From assembly GCF_001514065.1 (NCBI RefSeq), contig NZ_KQ948424.1, forward strand, positions 186,001-250,000: 64,000 nucleotides of DNA, read 5' to 3'. The notes beneath the pieces are model-generated. The model made no database searches. It had not been told where the DNA came from and saw only the letters and a program-made list of their open reading frames with translations. The position numbers and the translations under genes were made by a program. Shown piece by piece: positions 51,685 through 59,761 of the stretch (position 1 is its first letter; the number at the start of each line of letters is the position of its first letter). The DNA comes from Streptomyces antibioticus (lineage in GTDB: Bacteria > Actinomycetota > Actinomycetes > Streptomycetales > Streptomycetaceae).

Positions 51685-53022
51685 ATGCGGTCGAAGACCT
51701 CGCCGGTCGCGGCGTCGGGTGATTTGCCGGTTCCGGCATCAAAAGAGGCAGGGGCGGTGGAGGGGCCACCGGTGCCGGAGGCGGGGCCTCCGCCCGTGCG
51801 GATCCCGTTGGTGCCGCTCCTGAAGCCCGCGCTGCGACGCGGCTGGCGTGACCTCAACACCGTGCAGTTCGGGATGACTCCGGCACACGCGATGACACTG
51901 GGCCCGATGGACACGGCGACGGGCAGCTTCCTCGAACTGCTCAACGGCACGCGTGGCCCGGCGCTGCTGCGCGAGGAGGGGCGGCGGCTCGATCTGCCGG
52001 AGAGTCATGTCGACGGGCTGCTGGAGCGGCTGTCCCGCGCCGGGCTCCTCGACGACGCGCGGGGTGGCAGCCCGGCCGTCGAGACCCTGCGGCGGAGGAA
52101 GAAGCTCCTCGACCGGCTCCGCCCCGACCTGGCCTCGCTGTCCCTGACCACGTCCGCACCGGGCGAGGCGATGGAGCTGCTGGCCACCCGCCGCACCCTG
52201 CGGGTTCAGGTGCGGGGCGCCGGCCGGGTCGGCGCGGTACTGGCCTCCCTGTTGTCGGCCGCCGGCATCGGCGAGGTCGACGTGCGCGACGGCGGCCATG
52301 TCGAACCGTGGGACGTCGCTCCGGGCGGGCTGCCCGCCGAATCCGTCGGCGCCCGCAGGGACGAGGCCGCCCGGCGTGCCGTACGCCATTGCGCACCGGA
52401 CAACCCGCTGCGCCGCGGCCCGCAGTCACCGCCCGGGGACGGCGACCCCGGCTTCTCGCTGGTGATCCTCGCCCCGCGCGACGACGTCTCCGTCCACGCG
52501 CCGCCGTCGGCCGACACCTTCGTCGGCTCCGGTACGCCCCACTTGTACGCCGGTGTCGCGGAGGGAACCGGTGTGGTGGGCCCGCTCGTCCTGCCCGGCG
52601 AGACGAGTTGCGCGGGCTGCCTCCACGAGTGGCGCACGGACCGGGACCCGGCATGGCCCCGGCTGGTCGCCCAGTGGCGGTCGGGTGGGCGGCGGGTGCG
52701 GCGGGTACCGCCGTGCGACCTGGCGCTGGCCACGACGGTCGCCGGGCTGGCGGCGGCGCACGCACTCGCCTTCCTCGACGGCAGGGTGCCGTCCAGTGCC
52801 GGTGCCCGGTGGGAGGTTTCACTACCCTCTCTCAACTGGCATGCGCGGCAGGTCTGGGCGCATCCCGCATGCCCGTGCGGGGCCGCGGAGAAAGGTAAGG
52901 GAGAACTCACCTCCAAAGCCGGGGAGTCGCACGAGACAATGGCGGAACAAGGGCCGTCGAACGAGTCACGCCGCAAGGCAGCCGCGGCCCGGCCGGCTGG
53001 GACCTGGAGGGCGCATGTCTGA
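51685..53022 (+). CDS. ThiF/TOMM E1-like protein without nearby YcaO partner
   Basis: This 445-residue protein resembles the leader-binding, E1-like half of thiazole/oxazole-modified peptide cyclodehydratases. A winged-helix-like N-terminal part (about 45-130) is followed by a Rossmann segment (VRGAGRVGAVLASLLSAAGIGEVDVRD) and the paired cysteines CAGCLHEW and HPACPCGA that build the zinc site. An ATP-site Arg/Asp set is not obvious. No YcaO gene or precursor peptide is seen within the window. It overlaps the ABC1 kinase gene by 8 bp. Confidence 0.78.
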   Translation: MRSKTSPVAASGDLPVPASKEAGAVEGPPVPEAGPPPVRIPLVPLLKPALRRGWRDLNTVQFGMTPAHAMTLGPMDTATGSFLELLNGTRGPALLREEGRRLDLPESHVDGLLERLSRAGLLDDARGGSPAVETLRRRKKLLDRLRPDLASLSLTTSAPGEAMELLATRRTLRVQVRGAGRVGAVLASLLSAAGIGEVDVRDGGHVEPWDVAPGGLPAESVGARRDEAARRAVRHCAPDNPLRRGPQSPPGDGDPGFSLVILAPRDDVSVHAPPSADTFVGSGTPHLYAGVAEGTGVVGPLVLPGETSCAGCLHEWRTDRDPAWPRLVAQWRSGGRRVRRVPPCDLALATTVAGLAAAHALAFLDGRVPSSAGARWEVSLPSLNWHARQVWAHPACPCGAAEKGKGELTSKAGESHETMAEQGPSNESRRKAAAARPAGTWRAHV

Positions 53023-54382
53023 TCTTCCCCGGAAGGCGGTCACCCGGACCGCCAAGCTCGCCGCGCTCCCGCTCGGCTTCGCCGGCCGGGCGACCTGGGG
53101 GCTCGGCAAGAGAATCGTCGGGGAGTCCGCGGAGATCGTCGGCCGTGAGCTTCAGCAGCGCACCGCCGAGCAGCTGTTCAAGGTGCTCGGCGAGCTCAAG
53201 GGCGGCGCGATGAAGTTCGGCCAGGCCCTGTCCGTCTTCGAGTCGGCGCTGCCCGAGGAGGTCGCCGGTCCCTACCGGGCGGCCCTGACGAAGCTCCAGG
53301 ACGCCGCGCCTCCGATGCCGACGCGCACCGTGCACGGGGTGCTGGTGGAGCGGCTCGGCGCGAACTGGCAGGAGCTGTTCCTGGAGTTCGAGGACAAGCC
53401 GTCCGCGGCGGCGTCGATCGGCCAGGTGCACCGGGCCGTGTGGCACGACGGCCGGGAGGTCGCGGTCAAGGTGCAGTATCCGGGCGCCGGCGAGGCACTG
53501 CTGTCCGACCTGAACCAATTGAGCCGTTTCGCCCGCCTGCTGGGCCCGCTGATCCCCGGCATGGACATCAAGCCGCTGATCGCGGAGCTAAGGGACCGGG
53601 TCTCGGAGGAACTGGACTACGGCCTGGAGGCACAGGCCCAGCAGGTGCACGCCGAGGAGTTCGCGGACGACCCGGACGTGGTGGTGCCTGCGGTGGTCCA
53701 CCAGTGCGAACAGGTCCTGGTCACCGAGTGGATCGACGGCGTGCCCCTGTCCGAGATCATCTCGGACGGCACCCAGGAGCAGCGCGACCGTGCCGGCCAG
53801 CTCCTGGCCCGGTTCCTGTTCTCCGGTCCGGCCCGCACCGGCCTGCTCCACGCCGACCCGCACCCCGGCAACTTCCGTCTGCTGCCCGGCGGCCCGGACG
53901 GTGAGGAGGACTGGCGGCTGGGTGTCCTGGACTTCGGCACCGTCGACCGCCTGCCGGGCGGCCTGCCCACACCCATCGGGGACTCGCTGCGCATGACGCT
54001 CGACGAGGAGGCGGAGGCCGTCTACGAGCTGCTGCGCGAAGAGGGTTTCGTCAAGGACTCGATAGACCTGGACCCCGACGCCGTCCTCGACTACCTCCGG
54101 CCGATCATCGAGCCGGCCCTGGTGGACGAGTTCACCTTCACCCGCGGCTGGATGCGCAGCCAGGCGGCCCGCATCGCCGACATCCGCTCCCCCGCCTACC
54201 AGTTGGGCAAGCAGCTCAACCTCCCGCCGGCGTATCTACTCATCCACCGTGTGACGCTCAGCACGATCGGCGTCCTGTGCCAGCTGGGCGCCACGGTCCG
54301 GCTGCGCGAGGAACTGGAGGCGTGGCTGCCCGGATTCGTGCCGGAGGAGGACGCGGCCGAGGAGCCGGCGGCGGAGGCATGA
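53015..54382 (+). CDS. ABC1/UbiB-family atypical kinase
   Basis: This 455-residue protein carries the ADCK/UbiB signatures: GAMKFGQALS (the KxGQ inhibitory motif, 65-74), the Ala-rich loop AAASIGQVHRA, the VAVKVQYPG lysine, HADPHPGNFRL and LDFGTVD. The ATG at 53015 overlaps the E1-like gene, so the two are co-translated. In mycobacteria a relative of this gene lies beside whiB7. Its target is unknown. Confidence 0.91.
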   Translation: MSDLPRKAVTRTAKLAALPLGFAGRATWGLGKRIVGESAEIVGRELQQRTAEQLFKVLGELKGGAMKFGQALSVFESALPEEVAGPYRAALTKLQDAAPPMPTRTVHGVLVERLGANWQELFLEFEDKPSAAASIGQVHRAVWHDGREVAVKVQYPGAGEALLSDLNQLSRFARLLGPLIPGMDIKPLIAELRDRVSEELDYGLEAQAQQVHAEEFADDPDVVVPAVVHQCEQVLVTEWIDGVPLSEIISDGTQEQRDRAGQLLARFLFSGPARTGLLHADPHPGNFRLLPGGPDGEEDWRLGVLDFGTVDRLPGGLPTPIGDSLRMTLDEEAEAVYELLREEGFVKDSIDLDPDAVLDYLRPIIEPALVDEFTFTRGWMRSQAARIADIRSPAYQLGKQLNLPPAYLLIHRVTLSTIGVLCQLGATVRLREELEAWLPGFVPEEDAAEEPAAEA

Positions 54383-54388
54383 GCGGGG

Positions 54389-54598
54389 CTACCACCAGGC
54401 CGAGTCCAGCCGCCCCTCGATCGCCCTGAGGTTCTCGCGCGAGCAGGTGTCGCAGAAGTACTGGCGGACGCCGTTCTCCACGGAACAGGTCCAGGTGGGC
54501 CGGGGGCCCTCGGCGGTGGTGCCGCAGCGGGCGCACACCAAGGAATCGGGCTCCGGGGCGGAGCCGCCCTGGTCACTTCCGCCGGGATGACTCGTCAC
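54389..54598 (-). CDS. Small zinc-ribbon-like protein
   Basis: This 69-residue protein has a C-x2-C ... C ... C-x2-C arrangement (VCARCG, TWTCSVENG, YFCDTC), suggesting a treble-clef or ribbon zinc fold, and ends RAIEGRLDSAWW. The GTG at 54598 starts the conserved part; the ribosome binding site is weak. It is convergent with the ABC1 kinase gene. Function is unknown. Confidence 0.7.
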   Translation of the reverse strand: MTSHPGGSDQGGSAPEPDSLVCARCGTTAEGPRPTWTCSVENGVRQYFCDTCSRENLRAIEGRLDSAWW

Positions 54599-54689
54599 GC
54601 GGCGACGATATCGCCGTGCCGGTGGGAACGCCGGGCACAACGCACCGTTCCCGTACGCGGCGTTCCCGCCGCACCCCGGGCGCAACGCG

Positions 54690-54729
54690 CCGCGGGGGCC
54701 GGTCCGTTCGGACGGACCGGCCCCCGCGG
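54690..54729. terminator. 18-bp terminator downstream of the wblC unit
   Basis: A perfect 18-bp stem (CCGCGGGGGCCGGTCCGT and complement) closed by a 4-nt loop. It lies 53 bp past the stop of the minus-strand gene ending at 54782. Confidence 0.92.
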
Positions 54730-54781
54730 GGAGCTTTCGCCTCCCGGAGTCGGGGGAGGCCACCGCTTCAGGTGGTGGTGG

Positions 54782-55105
54782 TTACTGCATGACCGCGATG
54801 GCCAGCGCACGGCGGGCACGCATCGAGGCGCGCTCGGCCTTGCGCTGCATCCGGCGCGCGGCCGCCAGGCTCACGGCCCGGCGCTCCTGCTCCGCGGCGT
54901 GCAGTCGCTCGTGCATATGCGCACGTGCCAGGGCTTCTGGTTGGAGTTGCATCTCTCGGGTCCTGTTCTGGCGCAAGTCGGTGGCGCCAACGGTGGTGAA
55001 GTCTGGAATCGCGGAGCCGGCGGGCTCGGTGGTGGACGGCTTCATCGGGGCCTGCTTCTTGGGGTCGTGCGTGAGGGGGCGGTCGATCGTTCCTGCGGTG
55101 TTCAT
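54782..55105 (-). CDS. Basic helical protein translationally coupled to wblC
   Basis: This 107-residue ORF starts with an ATG that overlaps the wblC stop (ATGA). The C-terminal half is an Arg/Ala-rich amphipathic helix (ERLHAAEQERRAVSLAAARR) and the N-terminal half looks disordered. A shorter 56-residue product from an internal ATG (MQLQPEAL) is possible. I recognise no domain. The coupling suggests production with WblC under antibiotic stress. Confidence 0.65.
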   Translation of the reverse strand: MNTAGTIDRPLTHDPKKQAPMKPSTTEPAGSAIPDFTTVGATDLRQNRTREMQLQPEALARAHMHERLHAAEQERRAVSLAAARRMQRKAERASMRARRALAIAVMQ

Positions 55106-55470
55106 GCTGTGACCGGGTTCTTGCGCGGGCGACCACGGGGCCGCTTCCGGGCGACGACGACACCCTGGACGAACAGCTCGCCACCCCAGACGCCCCAGGG
55201 CTCACGCCGCTCCTTGGCGCCGGCGAGGCAGGCCTCCATCAGCGGGCAGGTGCGGCAGAGGGACTTGGCGTACTCGACGTCGGCCGGCGACTCGGCGAAG
55301 AAGACCTCCGGGTCGTAGGAGCGGCAGGGGACGGGTACGCCGAGGTTCTCGATGGCGTCGTCGAGCGCGGTGAGCGCGGTGAGCGGGGTCAAGGTGGAGT
55401 CCTCCGTGAGGCCGGGCTTGGGGATCGCTTCTGAGGGCGGTACGGACGGGGCGTGCGCTTCGAGTTGCAC
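55102..55470 (-). CDS. wblC: WhiB-like regulator WblC (WhiB7), antibiotic-resistance activator
   Basis: WblC/WhiB7 is an iron-sulfur protein that binds sigma-HrdB and switches on intrinsic antibiotic-resistance genes when translation is inhibited. The four cluster cysteines are C49, C72, C75 and C81. The EPWGVWGGE turn is at 90-98. The RPRGRPRK AT-hook at 110-117 distinguishes WhiB7 from other Wbl proteins. The GTG at 55470 (MQLEAHAP) gives 122 residues; the frame to 55584 overlaps the attenuator region. A roughly 600-nt leader precedes it. Confidence 0.94.
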   Translation of the reverse strand: MQLEAHAPSVPPSEAIPKPGLTEDSTLTPLTALTALDDAIENLGVPVPCRSYDPEVFFAESPADVEYAKSLCRTCPLMEACLAGAKERREPWGVWGGELFVQGVVVARKRPRGRPRKNPVTA

Positions 55471-55589
55471 GGTTTGTTTTCCTCGTCTGGTCGGTCCGGC
55501 CCTGTTGGACCGGTGGTCGGCTTGGTACCGGGTTCTTGTCTTGTCCCGAGGCCCCTTCGCTCCGTCATCCCCGTTGGAGGACAAACAGA

Positions 55590-55624
55590 AGGGCCGCGGA
55601 TCCCGGATGGGGTTCCGCGGCCCT
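55590..55624 (-). terminator. Intrinsic terminator in the wblC leader (attenuator)
   Basis: On the minus strand an 11-bp perfect stem (AGGGCCGCGGA and complement) is followed by TCTGTTTGTCC, a U-rich tail. It lies 120 nt before the wblC start. Alternative pairing with the leader hairpin at 55635-55653 would decide read-through. Confidence 0.82.
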
Positions 55625-55634
55625 GAAGGCGCCG

Positions 55635-55653
55635 GCCTGATCGACGATCAGGC
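55635..55653 (-). promoter_or_regulatory. Leader hairpin overlapping the leader-ORF stop codon
   Basis: GCCTGATC and GATCAGGC form an 8-bp perfect stem with a 3-nt loop. The TGA of the 105-codon leader ORF (55648-55650) lies inside one arm, 11 nt before the terminator begins. A ribosome ending or stalling here would melt it. Confidence 0.65.
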
Positions 55654-55965
55654 TGGATCACTCCAGGGTTCTGGCCCACGGAAGGCCCACATCAGGTGGT
55701 GCTGCGTTGCCTGCTTCCGGCTTCCGGCACCGGCCGCCGTAAAGGCATAGGCGTGCGCCTGTCCCTCTACTGCTTCCAGTGCCTTCGTCGGTCGCTCATT
55801 GCGCTCACGAACGGGCAGACCCGCGAGAGACACGGAGGACGCCGGGCCGGCGACACGAATGCCGGACAGACCGGTGCCCTTGTTCGAGACGGCGAGCATG
55901 CACAGGGAGGCGACGACCGAGCGATCGGTCATTTTCGCGGTGAAGCTGGCGTTGATGCTGGTCAC
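55648..55965 (-). CDS. Leader ORF upstream of wblC
   Basis: This 105-codon ORF starts with GTG behind a strong AGGAGG (55974-55979, 8-nt spacing). Its product begins MTSINASFTA and matches no family I know. Base composition is less GC-biased at third positions than real genes nearby. It ends inside the leader hairpin just before the attenuator. It is best read as a regulatory leader ORF that couples ribosome progress to wblC transcription; a short functional protein is the alternative. Confidence 0.5.
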   Translation of the reverse strand: MTSINASFTAKMTDRSVVASLCMLAVSNKGTGLSGIRVAGPASSVSLAGLPVRERNERPTKALEAVEGQAHAYAFTAAGAGSRKQATQHHLMWAFRGPEPWSDPA

Positions 55966-56077
55966 TGGACTCGCCTCCTCTCGGCGTCTCGGGGGACTGG
56001 GGTGAGCCAGTCCTTCGGGTATGTAAGTACAGCACGGAATCAGGGCCTCCGAGAAGGCCTCTGTTCCCGTGGCTAAG

Positions 56078-56117
56078 AACCTATGGGGATTGCTGGGGCA
56101 TGCGCAAACTATTTTTT
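56078..56117 (-). promoter_or_regulatory. wblC promoter with AT-rich WhiB7-type element
   Basis: On the minus strand the order is AT-rich GAAAAAATAGTT, TTGCGC (-35, 56102-56107), 18 bp, TAGGTT (-10, 56078-56083). An AT-rich block just upstream of the -35 is the hallmark of WhiB7-activated promoters, bound by the AT-hook. It predicts autoactivation and a leader of about 600 nt. Confidence 0.75.
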
Positions 56118-56130
56118 CGACGAGTTCGCT

Positions 56131-58332
56131 TCAGTCCCCAACTTCTTTCACCCCGGGGTCCTGGCCTGCGCAGATGGCCAGAACGTCGGCTCCGTAACGG
56201 TCGAGCTTGCGCTTGAGGACACCGGGAATGCGCGACAGCTCAACCGGACTGCTCGGCTCCGTCTCGGCGATGGCCATCAGGGTCCGGTCCGTGAAGACAC
56301 AGAAGTCCGGCTGACCGCTGAGCCGCGCCTGGATCCCGCGCCACTCGCGCAACCGTTCATAAAGGCCCTCGTCCATGTCGGAGGGGCAGTCCTCGCAGCG
56401 CATCAGCTTCATCTCACCGGCGTCGGTGAGCGTGCGTCCGCAGACCCGGCAGCGGGCGGGGGTGCGCTGGGTCCGGCGCGGCACGACGTCGGCCGCCGCG
56501 CCGCCCGTGAAGCCCCGCTCGACGCCCCCGGAGCCCGCGGTGGCGGTCCGCCCCGCCGTCATGACCGAACCGGGGCGCAACCCGTCGAGGAAGCGGCTGG
56601 GGCGACGGTTGGGGCGGCCGCCGGGCGACCGGGAGAGCGCCCAGGAGACATGGAGGTGTTCGCGGGCGCGGGTGACACCTACGTAGAGGAGGCGGCGTTC
56701 CTCCTCGATCTGCTCGTCGGTCTTTGCGTAGGTGATCGGCATCATGCCCTCGGCGACGCCGACCAGGAAGACGACGTCCCATTCCAGGCCCTTGGCCGAG
56801 TGCAGGGAGGCGAGGGTGACGCCCTGGACGGTCGGGGCGTGCTGGGCGCCGGCGCGCTCGTCGAGTTCGGCGACGAGGTCGGCGAGCGTGGCGTCGGATC
56901 TCGCGACGGTGAAGTCCTGCGCCAGGTTCACCAGCGCGGCGAGCGACTCCCAGCGTTCCCTGACCGCGCCGGAGCCGGCGGGGGGCTCGGACGTCCAGCC
57001 TTCGCCGGAGAGGACGGCACGGACCTGGGAGGGCAGGTCGGGGGCGTCGTCCAGCCGCGAGTCGTTGCCGCCGAAGCGGGCCGCGCCGCGCAGGTTGACG
57101 ATGGCTCTGCGCACTTCGGGGCGGTCGAAGAACCGCTCGGCTCCGCGCAGCTGGTAGGGGACGCCGGCGTCGGCGAGGGCCTGTTCGTAGGTCTCGGACT
57201 GGGCGTTGGTGCGGAACAGCACGGCGATCTCGGCGGCCTGGACCCCGGCGGCCAGCAGCTCGCGGATGCGGCGGGCGGCTCCCTCGGCCTCGGCGGGCTC
57301 GTCGGTGTACTCGGTGTAGACGGGCTCGGGGCCGGGGGCGCGCTGGGAGACCAGTTCCAGCCGGTGGTCGGCGGCGCGGCCGCTGGCCTGGGCGAGCAGG
57401 CCGTTGGCGAGATGGACGACCTGGGGGGTGGAGCGGTAGTCGCGGACCAGCTTGACGACGGTCGCGCCGGGGTGGCGGGTGCGGAAGTCGAGAAGATGGT
57501 CGGGAGTTGCTCCTGTGAACGAGTAGATCGTCTGGCTGGCGTCGCCGACCACGCAGAGGCTGTCGCGGTCGCCGAGCCAGAGTTCCAGCAGCCGCTGCTG
57601 GAGGGGGCTGACGTCCTGGTACTCGTCGACGACGAAGTGCTGGTACTGGGCGCGGACCTGGTCGGCGATGTCGTGCCGGTCCTGGAGGACGGCGACCGTG
57701 AGCAGCAGGACGTCCTCGAAGTCGATGACGGCGCGCTCGCGCTTGAGGTCCTCGTAGGCGGTGTAGAGCTGGGCGATCTCGGCGGGGTTGCGGGGGGCCT
57801 CGCGGCCGGCCTTGGCCGCGGCGAGGGCGTAGTCACCGGGGACGGTCTGGGTGACCTTGGACCACTCGATCTCCGCCGTGACGTCCCGCAGTTCTCCGCG
57901 GTCGAGGCGGATGCGGCAGGCGGCGGCCGCGTCGGCGACGAGCTGGATCTTGCGGTCGACGAGCCGGGGCATGGAACCGCCGACGGCTTTCGGCCAGAAG
58001 TACTGGAGCTGGCGCAGGGCGGCCGAGTGGAACGTGCGGGCCTGGACGCCGGCGGCGCCGAGCTGGCGCAGTCGGCCGCGCATCTCTCCGGCGGCGCGGT
58101 TGGTGAAGGTGACGGCCAGCACGCTGGAGGGCTGGAGGATGCCGGCCCGCACTCCGTAGGCGATGCGGTGGGTGATCGCCCGGGTCTTGCCCGTCCCGGC
58201 GCCGGCCAGCACGCACACCGGTCCGTGCAGGGCGGTGGCCACCTCGCGCTGCTCGGGGTCGAGCCCTTCGAGCACCGCGTCGGCCGAGTCCGGTACCTGC
58301 GGGAAGAGGGTGGAGTGCGTTGCTGCTGTCAC
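56131..58332 (-). CDS. uvrD2: ATP-dependent DNA helicase UvrD2
   Basis: This superfamily I helicase has 733 residues from the GTG at 58332. Walker A (LAGAGTGKTRA), DEYQDVSPLQ, GDASQTIYSF, ASLHSAKGLEWD and YVGVTRAREH motifs are intact. The C-terminus has a four-Cys zinc cluster (CRVCGRTL...RCEDC) and an HRDC domain (SRIPGVLKRKLDRYGADVL), which together mark actinobacterial UvrD2 rather than UvrD1. The frame is open to 58497 but the longer N-terminus is not family-like. Its end lies directly at the wblC promoter. Confidence 0.92.
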   Translation of the reverse strand: MTAATHSTLFPQVPDSADAVLEGLDPEQREVATALHGPVCVLAGAGTGKTRAITHRIAYGVRAGILQPSSVLAVTFTNRAAGEMRGRLRQLGAAGVQARTFHSAALRQLQYFWPKAVGGSMPRLVDRKIQLVADAAAACRIRLDRGELRDVTAEIEWSKVTQTVPGDYALAAAKAGREAPRNPAEIAQLYTAYEDLKRERAVIDFEDVLLLTVAVLQDRHDIADQVRAQYQHFVVDEYQDVSPLQQRLLELWLGDRDSLCVVGDASQTIYSFTGATPDHLLDFRTRHPGATVVKLVRDYRSTPQVVHLANGLLAQASGRAADHRLELVSQRAPGPEPVYTEYTDEPAEAEGAARRIRELLAAGVQAAEIAVLFRTNAQSETYEQALADAGVPYQLRGAERFFDRPEVRRAIVNLRGAARFGGNDSRLDDAPDLPSQVRAVLSGEGWTSEPPAGSGAVRERWESLAALVNLAQDFTVARSDATLADLVAELDERAGAQHAPTVQGVTLASLHSAKGLEWDVVFLVGVAEGMMPITYAKTDEQIEEERRLLYVGVTRAREHLHVSWALSRSPGGRPNRRPSRFLDGLRPGSVMTAGRTATAGSGGVERGFTGGAAADVVPRRTQRTPARCRVCGRTLTDAGEMKLMRCEDCPSDMDEGLYERLREWRGIQARLSGQPDFCVFTDRTLMAIAETEPSSPVELSRIPGVLKRKLDRYGADVLAICAGQDPGVKEVGD

Positions 58333-58515
58333 ACCGCCATGCTGCCAGGTCGGCGGGGACGGCTGTGCCGGTTGTCCACAGGCAGGGGCTCGCAGTCGTA
58401 CTAATGCGGCAGGCGTCACGTGCGGGCATACCCCGGGTGGGAATGGTGACCCGGTCGCGTACGTTCCCCCACTGGACGACCTCTTCCCCCGAGCCATCAG
58501 AGGAGCGCGCGAGAC

Positions 58516-58758
58516 ATGCAGGGCACTGTGACGATGTACAGCACCACGTGGTGCGGTTACTGCCAGCGGCTGAAGAAGCAGCTGGACCGCGAAGGCATCG
58601 CGTACACCGAGATCAACATCGAGCAGGACCCGGCGTCCGCCGCTTTCGTGGAGAAGGCGAATGGCGGAAACCAGACGGTCCCGACCGTGCTGTTCGCCGA
58701 CGGTTCGACGCTGACGAACCCGTCGCTGGCGCAGGTGAAGCAGAAGATCGCCGCCTGA
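58516..58758 (+). CDS. Mycoredoxin (glutaredoxin-like protein)
   Basis: This 80-residue thioredoxin-fold protein has the CGYC active site at 13-16, TVPTVLF with the cis-Pro, and NGGNQTVPT. It matches mycobacterial mycoredoxin-1, which reduces mycothiol mixed disulfides. The ATG at 58516 follows GAGCGCGCGAGAC. It is divergent from uvrD2 and convergent with nudC. Confidence 0.9.
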   Translation: MQGTVTMYSTTWCGYCQRLKKQLDREGIAYTEINIEQDPASAAFVEKANGGNQTVPTVLFADGSTLTNPSLAQVKQKIAA

Positions 58759-58778
58759 CTGAGCCCACGGATGAGGTG

Positions 58779-58811
58779 AAGGGGCCGCCCCCCGGCGGGG
58801 AGCGGCCCCTT
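58779..58811. terminator. Bidirectional terminator between mycoredoxin and nudC
   Basis: A 10-bp perfect stem (AAGGGGCCGC and complement) with a 13-nt loop, followed by T residues on both strands, lies between the convergent stop codons. Confidence 0.85.
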
Positions 58812-58819
58812 TCGCATGC

Positions 58820-59761
58820 TCAGACGCTGCGCGTCGGCAGCGGCTTGCCGTACCAGAGCTCGATCAGGCGGGCCGCGATCGAGATGCCGTACGGCGGCAG
58901 GACCTCGCCGGAGTCGAAGGCGGCGCCCAGTTCGTCGCGGGAGAACCAGCGGGCCTCGCCGATCTCGTCGCCGTCGACGTTGATCTCGGTGGAGGTGGCG
59001 CGGGCCAGGAAGCCGAGCATGAGGCTGGACGGGAACGGCCAGGGCTGGCTGGCGACGTACTCGACCTGGCCGACGGTGACACCGGCCTCCTCGAAGACCT
59101 CCCGGCGCACGGCCTGCTCGATGGACTCTCCGGGTTCGACGAAGCCGGCGAGCGTCGAGAAGCGTCCCTCGGGCCAGTGGACCTGGCGGCCGAGCAGGAT
59201 GCGGTCGTCCTCGTCGGTGACGGCCATGATCACGGCGGGGTCGGTGCGCGGGTAGTGCTCGGCGCCGCAGGCCTGGCAGCGGCGGATGTGCCCGGCGGCG
59301 GCGATCACGGTGCGCTCGCCGCAGCGGGAGCAGAAGCGGTGGGTGCGCTGCCAGTTCTCCAGACCGACCGCGTGCACCATGAGGCCCGCCTCGCGCGGCG
59401 ACAGCAGCAGGCCCGCCTCCCGCAGGCCCGCCGGGCGCGCGGACTGGTCGATGCGGCCGGGCAGGGCGTCCTTCTGGAGGGCGAAGTAGCGGACGCCGTC
59501 CTCGTCGATGCCGAGGAAGTAGCGGTGGGCCTCGGTGAGCGGGGCCTCGAAGGCGGGCGTCATGACGAGTTCGGTACGGCCGTCGGCCGTCTCGTCGATG
59601 AGGACCTGACCGCCGGAGACCACGAAGCAGCGGGTCGTGGGGTGGCTCCAGGCCGCCGCGAGCCAGGCCTCGTCGAGCCGGTGGTGGGCGGCCCGGTCGA
59701 TGCCGCTCGGGGCGGTGAGCGAGATGGGTCGGTCGGCGGTGTGGTCGGTCCAGGTGGTCAC
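58820..59761 (-). CDS. nudC: NAD(P)H pyrophosphatase NudC
   Basis: NudC cleaves NADH to NMNH and AMP and can decap NAD-capped RNA. The 313-residue protein has the zinc ribbon C144, C147, C162 and C165, then the Nudix box (GFVEPGES...REVFEEAG, 206-228), then SQPWPFPSS (238-246), the NudC signature. The GTG at 59761 has GGAAG 5 nt upstream. A TTG at 59773 is also open but sits on the GGGGGAG. Confidence 0.93.
   Translation of the reverse strand: MTTWTDHTADRPISLTAPSGIDRAAHHRLDEAWLAAAWSHPTTRCFVVSGGQVLIDETADGRTELVMTPAFEAPLTEAHRYFLGIDEDGVRYFALQKDALPGRIDQSARPAGLREAGLLLSPREAGLMVHAVGLENWQRTHRFCSRCGERTVIAAAGHIRRCQACGAEHYPRTDPAVIMAVTDEDDRILLGRQVHWPEGRFSTLAGFVEPGESIEQAVRREVFEEAGVTVGQVEYVASQPWPFPSSLMLGFLARATSTEINVDGDEIGEARWFSRDELGAAFDSGEVLPPYGISIAARLIELWYGKPLPTRSV

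What the first reader, a model, noticed from the sequence alone, without database searches (positions are those of the whole stretch)
55470..56117. wblC leader combines a WhiB7-type promoter, a 105-codon leader ORF, a hairpin over its stop, and a terminator
Read on the minus strand, the order is AT-rich block, -35/-10, strong AGGAGG and GTG, an ORF of 105 codons, its stop inside an 8-bp hairpin, then 11 nt later an 11-bp terminator with a U-rich tail, 120 nt before wblC. WhiB7/wblC genes are known to respond to translation inhibitors, and upstream-ORF attenuation has been described for them. The length of this ORF and the placement of its stop in a potential antiterminator arm suggest that ribosome slowing anywhere along the ORF could be sensed, not only at a short leader peptide.
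Basis: partly seen in the sequence, partly recalled or inferred. Interest (0 to 1): 0.72.

Follow-up and report, generated by a model that had tools for sequence, protein, structure and literature searches.

The report
wblC antibiotic-response leader with long uORF
This Streptomyces gene for an antibiotic-resistance regulator is controlled by a known kind of RNA switch: a long leader reading frame that must be translated to its end to keep the gene off, and comparison with relatives suggests that finishing the frame matters more than most of the peptide it encodes.

Summary
In detail: promoter, AGGAGG, GTG, 105-codon ORF, hairpin over the stop, terminator and wblC lie where stated. This is the uORF attenuator already described for wblC/whiB7 (Lee, Lee & Roe 2022, not held; seen through passages of papers citing it). 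Folding and comparison refine it. The stop hairpin is the tip of a long antiterminator joining uORF codons 95-105 and the stop to the terminator's 5' arm; over 145 leaders it has 239 two-sided changed cells (at most 89 when slid) and at least 87 Watson-Crick switches on a tree (28-55 slid). In folding, a ribosome with its P-site at codons 1-90 leaves it free; from codon 96 it mostly does not. In 114 of 114 Streptomyces loci with both motifs, start and stop stay in frame without an internal stop, yet dN/dS over codons 2-90 is 0.83 (wblC 0.17), a ratio inflated by constrained synonymous sites. This favours a sensor of completed translation, with one reservation: codons 62-81 are 48% alanine in Streptomyces, so an alanine sensor may be built in. 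That stretch lies in a second RNA module seen only in this family among the loci examined. Long uORFs are usual. No expression data.

The parts
56078..56117 (-). WhiB7-type promoter: A-rich block, -35 TTGCGC (56107-56102), -10 TAGGTT (56083-56078)
   Evidence: near-invariant over 115 Streptomyces leaders; published WblC rule GAAAWY 3 nt before -35, here AAAAAT, 5 of 6
56033..56071 (-). 5' UTR hairpin near the inferred transcription start
   Evidence: RNAalifold on 115 leaders, mean pair probability 0.93 and 0.99 for its two helices
55994..56013 (-). second 5' UTR hairpin GGACTGG/CCAGTCC
   Evidence: mean pair probability 0.90; one pair is C-G in 49 and T-A in 34 of 115, unpaired in 25
55974..55979 (-). 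Shine-Dalgarno AGGAGG of the uORF
   Evidence: GTG with a Shine-Dalgarno match of at least 4 bases in 115 of 115 Streptomyces, GGAGG in 114 of 115
55648..55965 (-). uORF, 105 codons, GTG to TGA
55726..55797 (-). module inside the uORF: GAGCGACCG, then hairpin GGCACTGG ... CCGGTGCC around an alanine-rich stretch (codons 62-81)
   Evidence: exact motif in 113 of 115 Streptomyces, 43 of 51 other family, 0 of 78 other class loci
55676..55683 (-). antiterminator helix P1, 5' strand (codons 95-97, F-R-G)
   Evidence: folding, pair counts
55661..55668 (-). antiterminator helix P2, 5' strand (codons 100-102, P-W-S)
55621..55628 (-). antiterminator P2, 3' strand
55613..55620 (-). antiterminator P1, 3' strand = part of the terminator 5' arm (shared)
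55583..55624 (-). intrinsic terminator with U-rich tail
   Evidence: 96.9% of 1882 cells paired over 145 leaders; -29.7 kcal/mol
55102..55470 (-). wblC (WhiB7 orthologue), 122 aa, with AT-hook-like tail
   Evidence: Pfam PF02467 Whib E 9.9e-15; AT_hook 15.6 bits, below its cut-off of 17.4

Best explanation
A ribosome-mediated transcription attenuator. RNA polymerase starts at the WhiB7-type promoter; ribosomes load on the uORF. If translation is normal, a ribosome reaches the last codons while the terminator is being made and covers the 5' strand of the antiterminator, so the terminator forms and wblC stays off. If ribosomes are slowed, stalled, starved or missing anywhere up to about codon 90, the nascent RNA folds UUCCGUGG/CCGCGGAA + CCCUGGAG/CUUCAGGG + the stop-codon helix into one long hairpin that takes the terminator's 5' arm, polymerase reads through, and WblC made then activates its own promoter. 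The uORF mainly reports that translation was completed rather than a particular peptide; an alanine-rich block may add sensitivity to alanine supply. Shown here: anatomy, folding, conserved pairing, frame conservation with little extra peptide conservation. Inferred: translation of the uORF, timing, induction.
For: Antiterminator over 145 leaders: 239 two-sided changed cells against at most 89 when slid by 1-3 columns, reached by 0 of 500 shuffles; at least 87 Watson-Crick switches on a wblC tree against 28-55 slid; the terminator covaries too. Folding at all 105 P-sites: codons 1-90 leave 10-11 of 11 arm bases in the antiterminator, codon 96 none. Arm sequestered in 20 of 20, 44 of 45 and 75 of 80 leaders against 8.3, 20.2 and 40.9 from shuffles. 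Frame: 114 of 114 in frame, 0 internal stops. dN/dS 0.83 for codons 2-90, wblC 0.17, helicase tail 0.18. Published for wblC and whiB7.
Against: For every P-site folded the full-length terminator fold is lower, by about 9-15 kcal/mol for P-sites up to codon 90, so the antiterminator must win kinetically; not shown. One of five measures (pairs with any two-sided change, 19) is reached by 15 of 500 shuffles; P1 and the inner stop helix pair in only 68.9% and 68.3% of cells. Fold energy beats nearly all shuffles in only 51 of 80 class leaders. The dN/dS ratio is partly high because synonymous sites are constrained: in the same 75 loci pS is 0.171 and pN 0.145 for the uORF, 0.427 and 0.108 for the helicase tail. 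Codons 62-81 are 48% alanine, so codon identity may matter there. No Ribo-seq, 3'-end or reporter data. 8 of 254 distinct loci were set aside for want of a usable terminator.
Confidence: 0.9

Rival explanations
1. Arrest-peptide attenuator: a particular nascent peptide (for instance the conserved C-terminus WAFRGPEPWSDPA) stalls the ribosome when drug is bound, as at erm leaders.
For: The last 13 codons are conserved in Streptomyces (dN/dS 0.21).
Against: Those codons include the antiterminator's 5' strand; outside the family 58 different C-terminal hexapeptides occur in 78 loci (somewhat inflated, as the stop frame was chosen by length and a few choices look wrong) while the arm is still sequestered in 75 of 80. 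Codons 2-90 show dN/dS 0.83.
Confidence: 0.05
2. Amino-acid-specific attenuator of the trp/ilv kind, for alanine: ribosomes wait at an alanine-rich block when alanyl-tRNA is short. It may also be an added layer on the general mechanism.
For: Streptomyces codons 62-81 are 48% alanine against 9-10% in codons 1-55 and 82-105, often the codon GCA; whiB7 is linked to alanine starvation in mycobacteria (title of Poulton 2024 in the reference list, and a passage); wblC/whiB7 responds to amino-acid starvation.
Against: Reported inducers are a broad range of ribosome-targeting drugs. Whole uORFs are only mildly alanine-rich (16.4-18.0%, helicase 13.5%) and 19 of 78 class uORFs have no two adjacent alanines. 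The block lies in a conserved hairpin that may itself be the reason for its codons.
Confidence: 0.08
3. The uORF encodes a functional small protein and the RNA structures are secondary.
For: Frame strictly kept; one match in this genome.
Against: dN/dS 0.83 against 0.17-0.18 for neighbours (with the caveat on synonymous sites); no Pfam match; in 51 other family uORFs without their last 15 codons the three codon positions differ alike (0.466, 0.484, 0.498, though alignment at that divergence is uncertain).
Confidence: 0.03

Closest known systems
wblC uORF attenuator of Streptomyces coelicolor / whiB7 uORF attenuator of mycobacteria (Lee, Lee & Roe 2022; Burian & Thompson 2018; neither read, known from passages in PMC11550727, PMC10727445, PMC13393426, PMC12421871)
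   Same: Same gene, same order of promoter, uORF, terminator, gene; antiterminator using overlapping uORF and terminator sequence
   Different: Nothing shown to differ. Whether those papers give the three-helix antiterminator, the class-wide covariation, the dN/dS result, the alanine block or the mid-uORF module could not be checked
E. coli toiL uORF of topAI-yjhQ (PMC12121999, passages read)
   Same: One uORF senses several classes of ribosome-targeting antibiotics
   Different: Stall positions there differ by drug; whether antibiotics stall ribosomes in the whiB7 uORF was called untested
lmrC, tiaA and are5sc attenuators of Streptomyces (PMC8546547, PMC12421871, passages read)
   Same: uORF, premature terminator, alternative antiterminator
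   Different: The leader peptides given for are5sc and tiaA are 3 and 9 residues, with stalling at the start codon; here the uORF is long

Membership tests
whiB7/wblC uORF attenuator | WhiB7/WblC orthologue directly downstream | tested here: met
   Pfam Whib; of 80 named uORF loci all hold a wblC match, 79 of them downstream on the same strand by the position cut used
whiB7/wblC uORF attenuator | WhiB7-responsive promoter with A-rich block before -35 | tested here: met
   sequence match and conservation; binding not tested
whiB7/wblC uORF attenuator | intrinsic terminator between uORF and gene | tested here: met
whiB7/wblC uORF attenuator | antiterminator overlapping uORF and terminator | tested here: met
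whiB7/wblC uORF attenuator | uORF is translated | not testable with these tools
   only indirect: Shine-Dalgarno and frame conservation
whiB7/wblC uORF attenuator | readthrough induced by translation inhibitors | not testable with these tools
   reported for S. coelicolor, not tested in this strain
Arrest-peptide attenuator | conserved nascent peptide at the stall site | tested here: not met
   dN/dS 0.83 over codons 2-90; 58 C-terminal hexapeptides in 78 class loci (somewhat inflated)
Amino-acid-specific attenuator | conserved block of regulatory codons for one amino acid | tested here: inconclusive
   codons 62-81 are 48% alanine in Streptomyces; longest alanine run is 3 or more in 69 of 115; no alanine run in 19 of 78 class uORFs
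Any Rfam 15 family | covariance-model match | tested here: not met
   only two matches at E 0.98, far below their gathering scores, in window 53000-59000

The most novel reading that the evidence does not exclude
The long uORF is a translation-speed meter rather than a stall detector: small slowing adds up over about 90 codons until the ribosome lags too far behind polymerase to block the antiterminator, and in Streptomyces and its family a built-in module (GAGCGACCG + GGCAYYGG...YCGGUGCC around an alanine-rich stretch, window 55797-55726) acts as a checkpoint midway, by holding polymerase, slowing the ribosome, or sensing alanine, so that uniform slowing by any drug class is read out.
Probability: 0.2. 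Interest if true: 0.65.

Novelty: already known. Interest (0 to 1): 0.4.

Why it matters
How one leader senses many unrelated ribosome inhibitors has been left open; a 2025 paper says that stalling in the whiB7 uORF is untested. The comparative data point to a simple testable answer: failure to finish the frame is the signal, with the switch between codons 90 and 96. The element occurs in most wblC loci sampled across the class, has one strong site in this genome, and matched no Rfam family, so the alignment could seed one. The family-specific module inside the uORF, with its alanine-rich stretch, is a concrete unexplained part.

Tried and rejected
Sigma-70 and terminator consensus scan: neither the promoter nor the wblC terminator listed; conservation used instead. 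Rfam: nothing relevant. First helicase control mixed promoter and intergenic DNA into the set and was discarded; replaced by the tblastn-based one. The zero stops of frame 0 are by construction; the independent test is. The double-change counts for the mid-uORF helix do not beat all controls (7 pairs, reached by 140 of 500 shuffles; pair types reached by 60 of 500; slide -3 gives more double-changed cells, 47 against 35); percentage paired and covariation score do, so that helix is less firmly supported than the antiterminator. Overlapping +1-frame ORF (MSDRPRHWK) as the reason for frozen codons: rejected because its ATG is not kept in several relatives (listing). Own-genome model hits other than the wblC site are at E 0.02-0.06, one of them the opposite strand of the same site; not pursued. 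A consensus pause site after the mid-uORF hairpin was looked for by eye only and none was plain. Literature searches; in the passages that I read none mentions dN/dS or the module, but the key 2022 paper is not held and papers were seen only in passages. The search for whiB7, uORF, conserved, covariation together returned 0 papers.

Sampling: loci were taken from the better wblC matches, not from every genome searched; 258 loci, 254 distinct (there 3 of 254 had a weak or no terminator). 8 were set aside, named by hand after the listing or for low score. 244 have a uORF under a filter of at least 40 open codons and a stop 14-36 nt before the terminator. Without the length filter 6 loci had under 60 codons. 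Pair counts used 145 distinct leaders (20 of 115 Streptomyces, 45 other family, 80 other class); the module alignment used 94 of the 143 references listed. The references were superseded.

Full report
What is there. The window is from a Streptomyces-like genome (same-genus hits; the best named uORF match is S. justiciae, 98%, where records of the window's own genome may be left out). The only numerical correction is 10 rather than 11 nt between stop hairpin and terminator. The gene is wblC (Whib domain).

Conservation. In 115 Streptomyces loci the promoter block, Shine-Dalgarno, GTG, stop region and terminator are near-invariant. All 115 have a GTG start with a Shine-Dalgarno match of at least 4 bases and lengths of 90-124 codons, median 108; 50 of 51 other family members (median 121) and 77 of 78 other class loci (median 76) have such a site too. 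That selection required an open frame of at least 40 codons; without it 6 loci had less than 60 codons, of which two (L148, 25; L242, 49) look like shorter uORFs and four have no convincing uORF or terminator. So long uORFs are the rule in the leaders sampled, not a peculiarity here.

The switch. Folding the nascent RNA shows that once the terminator's 5' arm is made, but before its 3' arm, the best structure is one long hairpin: UUCCGUGG (55683-55676) with CCGCGGAA (55620-55613), CCCUGGAG (55668-55661) with CUUCAGGG (55628-55621), and the helix over the stop as its tip. With a ribosome at the stop the terminator forms. Stepping a ribosome over all 105 codons (assumed front edge 15 nt past the first P-site base) gives 11 of 11 arm bases in the antiterminator for codons 1-89, 10 at 90, 5 at 91-92, 2-3 at 93-95, 0 at 96, 3 at 97-98 and 0 from 99. 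Against: with the whole terminator made, its fold is always lower in energy, by about 9-15 kcal/mol for the P-sites up to codon 90 that sampled, so the antiterminator has to win by forming first.

Selection on the pairing. On a MAFFT alignment of 145 distinct leaders (made without structure), the antiterminator has 73.8% of cells paired (at most 47.3% when slid) and 239 two-sided changed cells (at most 89); four of five measures are reached by 0 of 500 shuffles and the fifth, pairs with any two-sided change, by 15 of 500. On a tree of the wblC proteins it needs at least 87 Watson-Crick to Watson-Crick switches, against 28-55 for slid partners. The terminator has 96.9% of cells paired and 86 two-sided changed cells. 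Folding each leader separately, at least 5 of 10 arm bases are taken by upstream RNA in 20 of 20 Streptomyces, 44 of 45 family and 75 of 80 class leaders, against 8.3, 20.2 and 40.9 expected from shuffled upstream sequence; the fold energy beats nearly all of its 20 shuffles in 20, 41 and 51 of these.

Frame and peptide. Taking start and stop by motif alone, regardless of frame, the distance is a multiple of three and free of stops in 114 of 114 Streptomyces loci with both motifs (one of 115 lacked the start motif), and in 79 of 79 of the named, overlapping set. Yet changes fall about equally on the three codon positions in codons 17-55 (0.248, 0.239, 0.286), and dN/dS is 0.83 for codons 2-90, against 0.17 for wblC and 0.18 for the tail of the upstream helicase (75 loci). 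The ratio must be read with care: synonymous sites of the uORF are themselves constrained (in the same 75 loci pS 0.171 and pN 0.145, helicase pS 0.427 and pN 0.108), so the finding is that constraint falls on nucleotides with little extra on amino acids, not that the peptide is free. The last 13 codons are conserved (0.21), but they include the antiterminator's 5' strand; outside the family the end of the peptide takes 58 forms of six residues in 78 loci (somewhat inflated by doubtful stop choices) while the arm is still sequestered. An arrest peptide or a functional small protein is hard to reconcile with this; a sensor of completed translation is easier.

A further element. Codons 56-81 hold frozen codons that are rare in Streptomyces by general knowledge (CGA at codon 58 in 115 of 115, GCA at codon 62 in 114 of 115). 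They coincide with the motif GAGCGACCG and a hairpin GGCACTGG/CCGGTGCC. The exact motif is in 113 of 115 Streptomyces and 43 of 51 other family uORFs, and 0 of 78 elsewhere in the class (4 of 78 with one mismatch). The structure tested pairs in 84.7% of cells, at most 47.5% when slid (outer helix 90.1%), but its double changes do not beat every control. The same stretch, codons 62-81, is 48% alanine in Streptomyces, against 9-10% in codons 1-55 and 82-105. As whiB7 is linked to alanine starvation in mycobacteria (Poulton 2024, seen as a reference title and a passage), this could be an alanine sensor, a timing hairpin, or both; nothing here decides.

Scope. The attenuator model finds one strong site in this genome and, in a sample of 119 genomes of the phylum searched with stricter filters, 10 with a match at E <= 0.01: 8 of the class (three of them same-genus, the window's genome included), and 2 weak ones outside it at about E 0.004; at least two class genomes in that sample had none. 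Rfam 15 gave no relevant match.

What is known. Passages read say that whiB7/wblC genes have a uORF and terminator, that translation of the uORF favours termination, and that stalled ribosomes allow an antiterminator made from overlapping uORF and terminator sequence (PMC11550727; PMC10727445; PMC13393426), that WblC of S. coelicolor is controlled this way (PMC12421871), and that any stress that stalls ribosomes may induce it. The primary paper, Lee, Lee & Roe 2022, is not held, so I cannot say which of the details above it already contains. Verdict: a well-preserved example of a known and interesting switch, with comparative evidence that sharpens how it may sense.

Noticed in passing
window 55105-54785 (-): A 107-aa ORF overlaps the wblC stop by ATGA and has no Pfam match; tblastn finds it in 80 of 80 named loci and in 63 of the other loci, many of which hold no downstream DNA, including a few class loci. 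Probably an unknown partner expressed with wblC.
   Followed up: partly
window 55797-55726 (-): Motif GAGCGACCG plus hairpin and an alanine-rich stretch inside the uORF, found in Streptomyces and its family but not in the other class loci examined.
   Followed up: partly
window 56037-56022 (-): Block CCGTGCTGTACTTACA between promoter and uORF is conserved in most of 115 Streptomyces; role unknown.
   Followed up: no
window 55935-55924 (-): uORF codons 11-14 (AAA ATG ACC GAT) keep AAA (114 of 115) and GAT (111 of 111 where Asp) and may pair with the start-codon region.
   Followed up: no
window 55471-55452 (-): The wblC GTG start lies in a small well-conserved hairpin CGTGC...GCACG.
   Followed up: no
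window 56131-58497 (-) and 52553-54382 (+): Upstream neighbour is a UvrD-type helicase with HRDC domain; an ABC1-kinase-like gene lies beyond wblC on the other strand.
   Followed up: no
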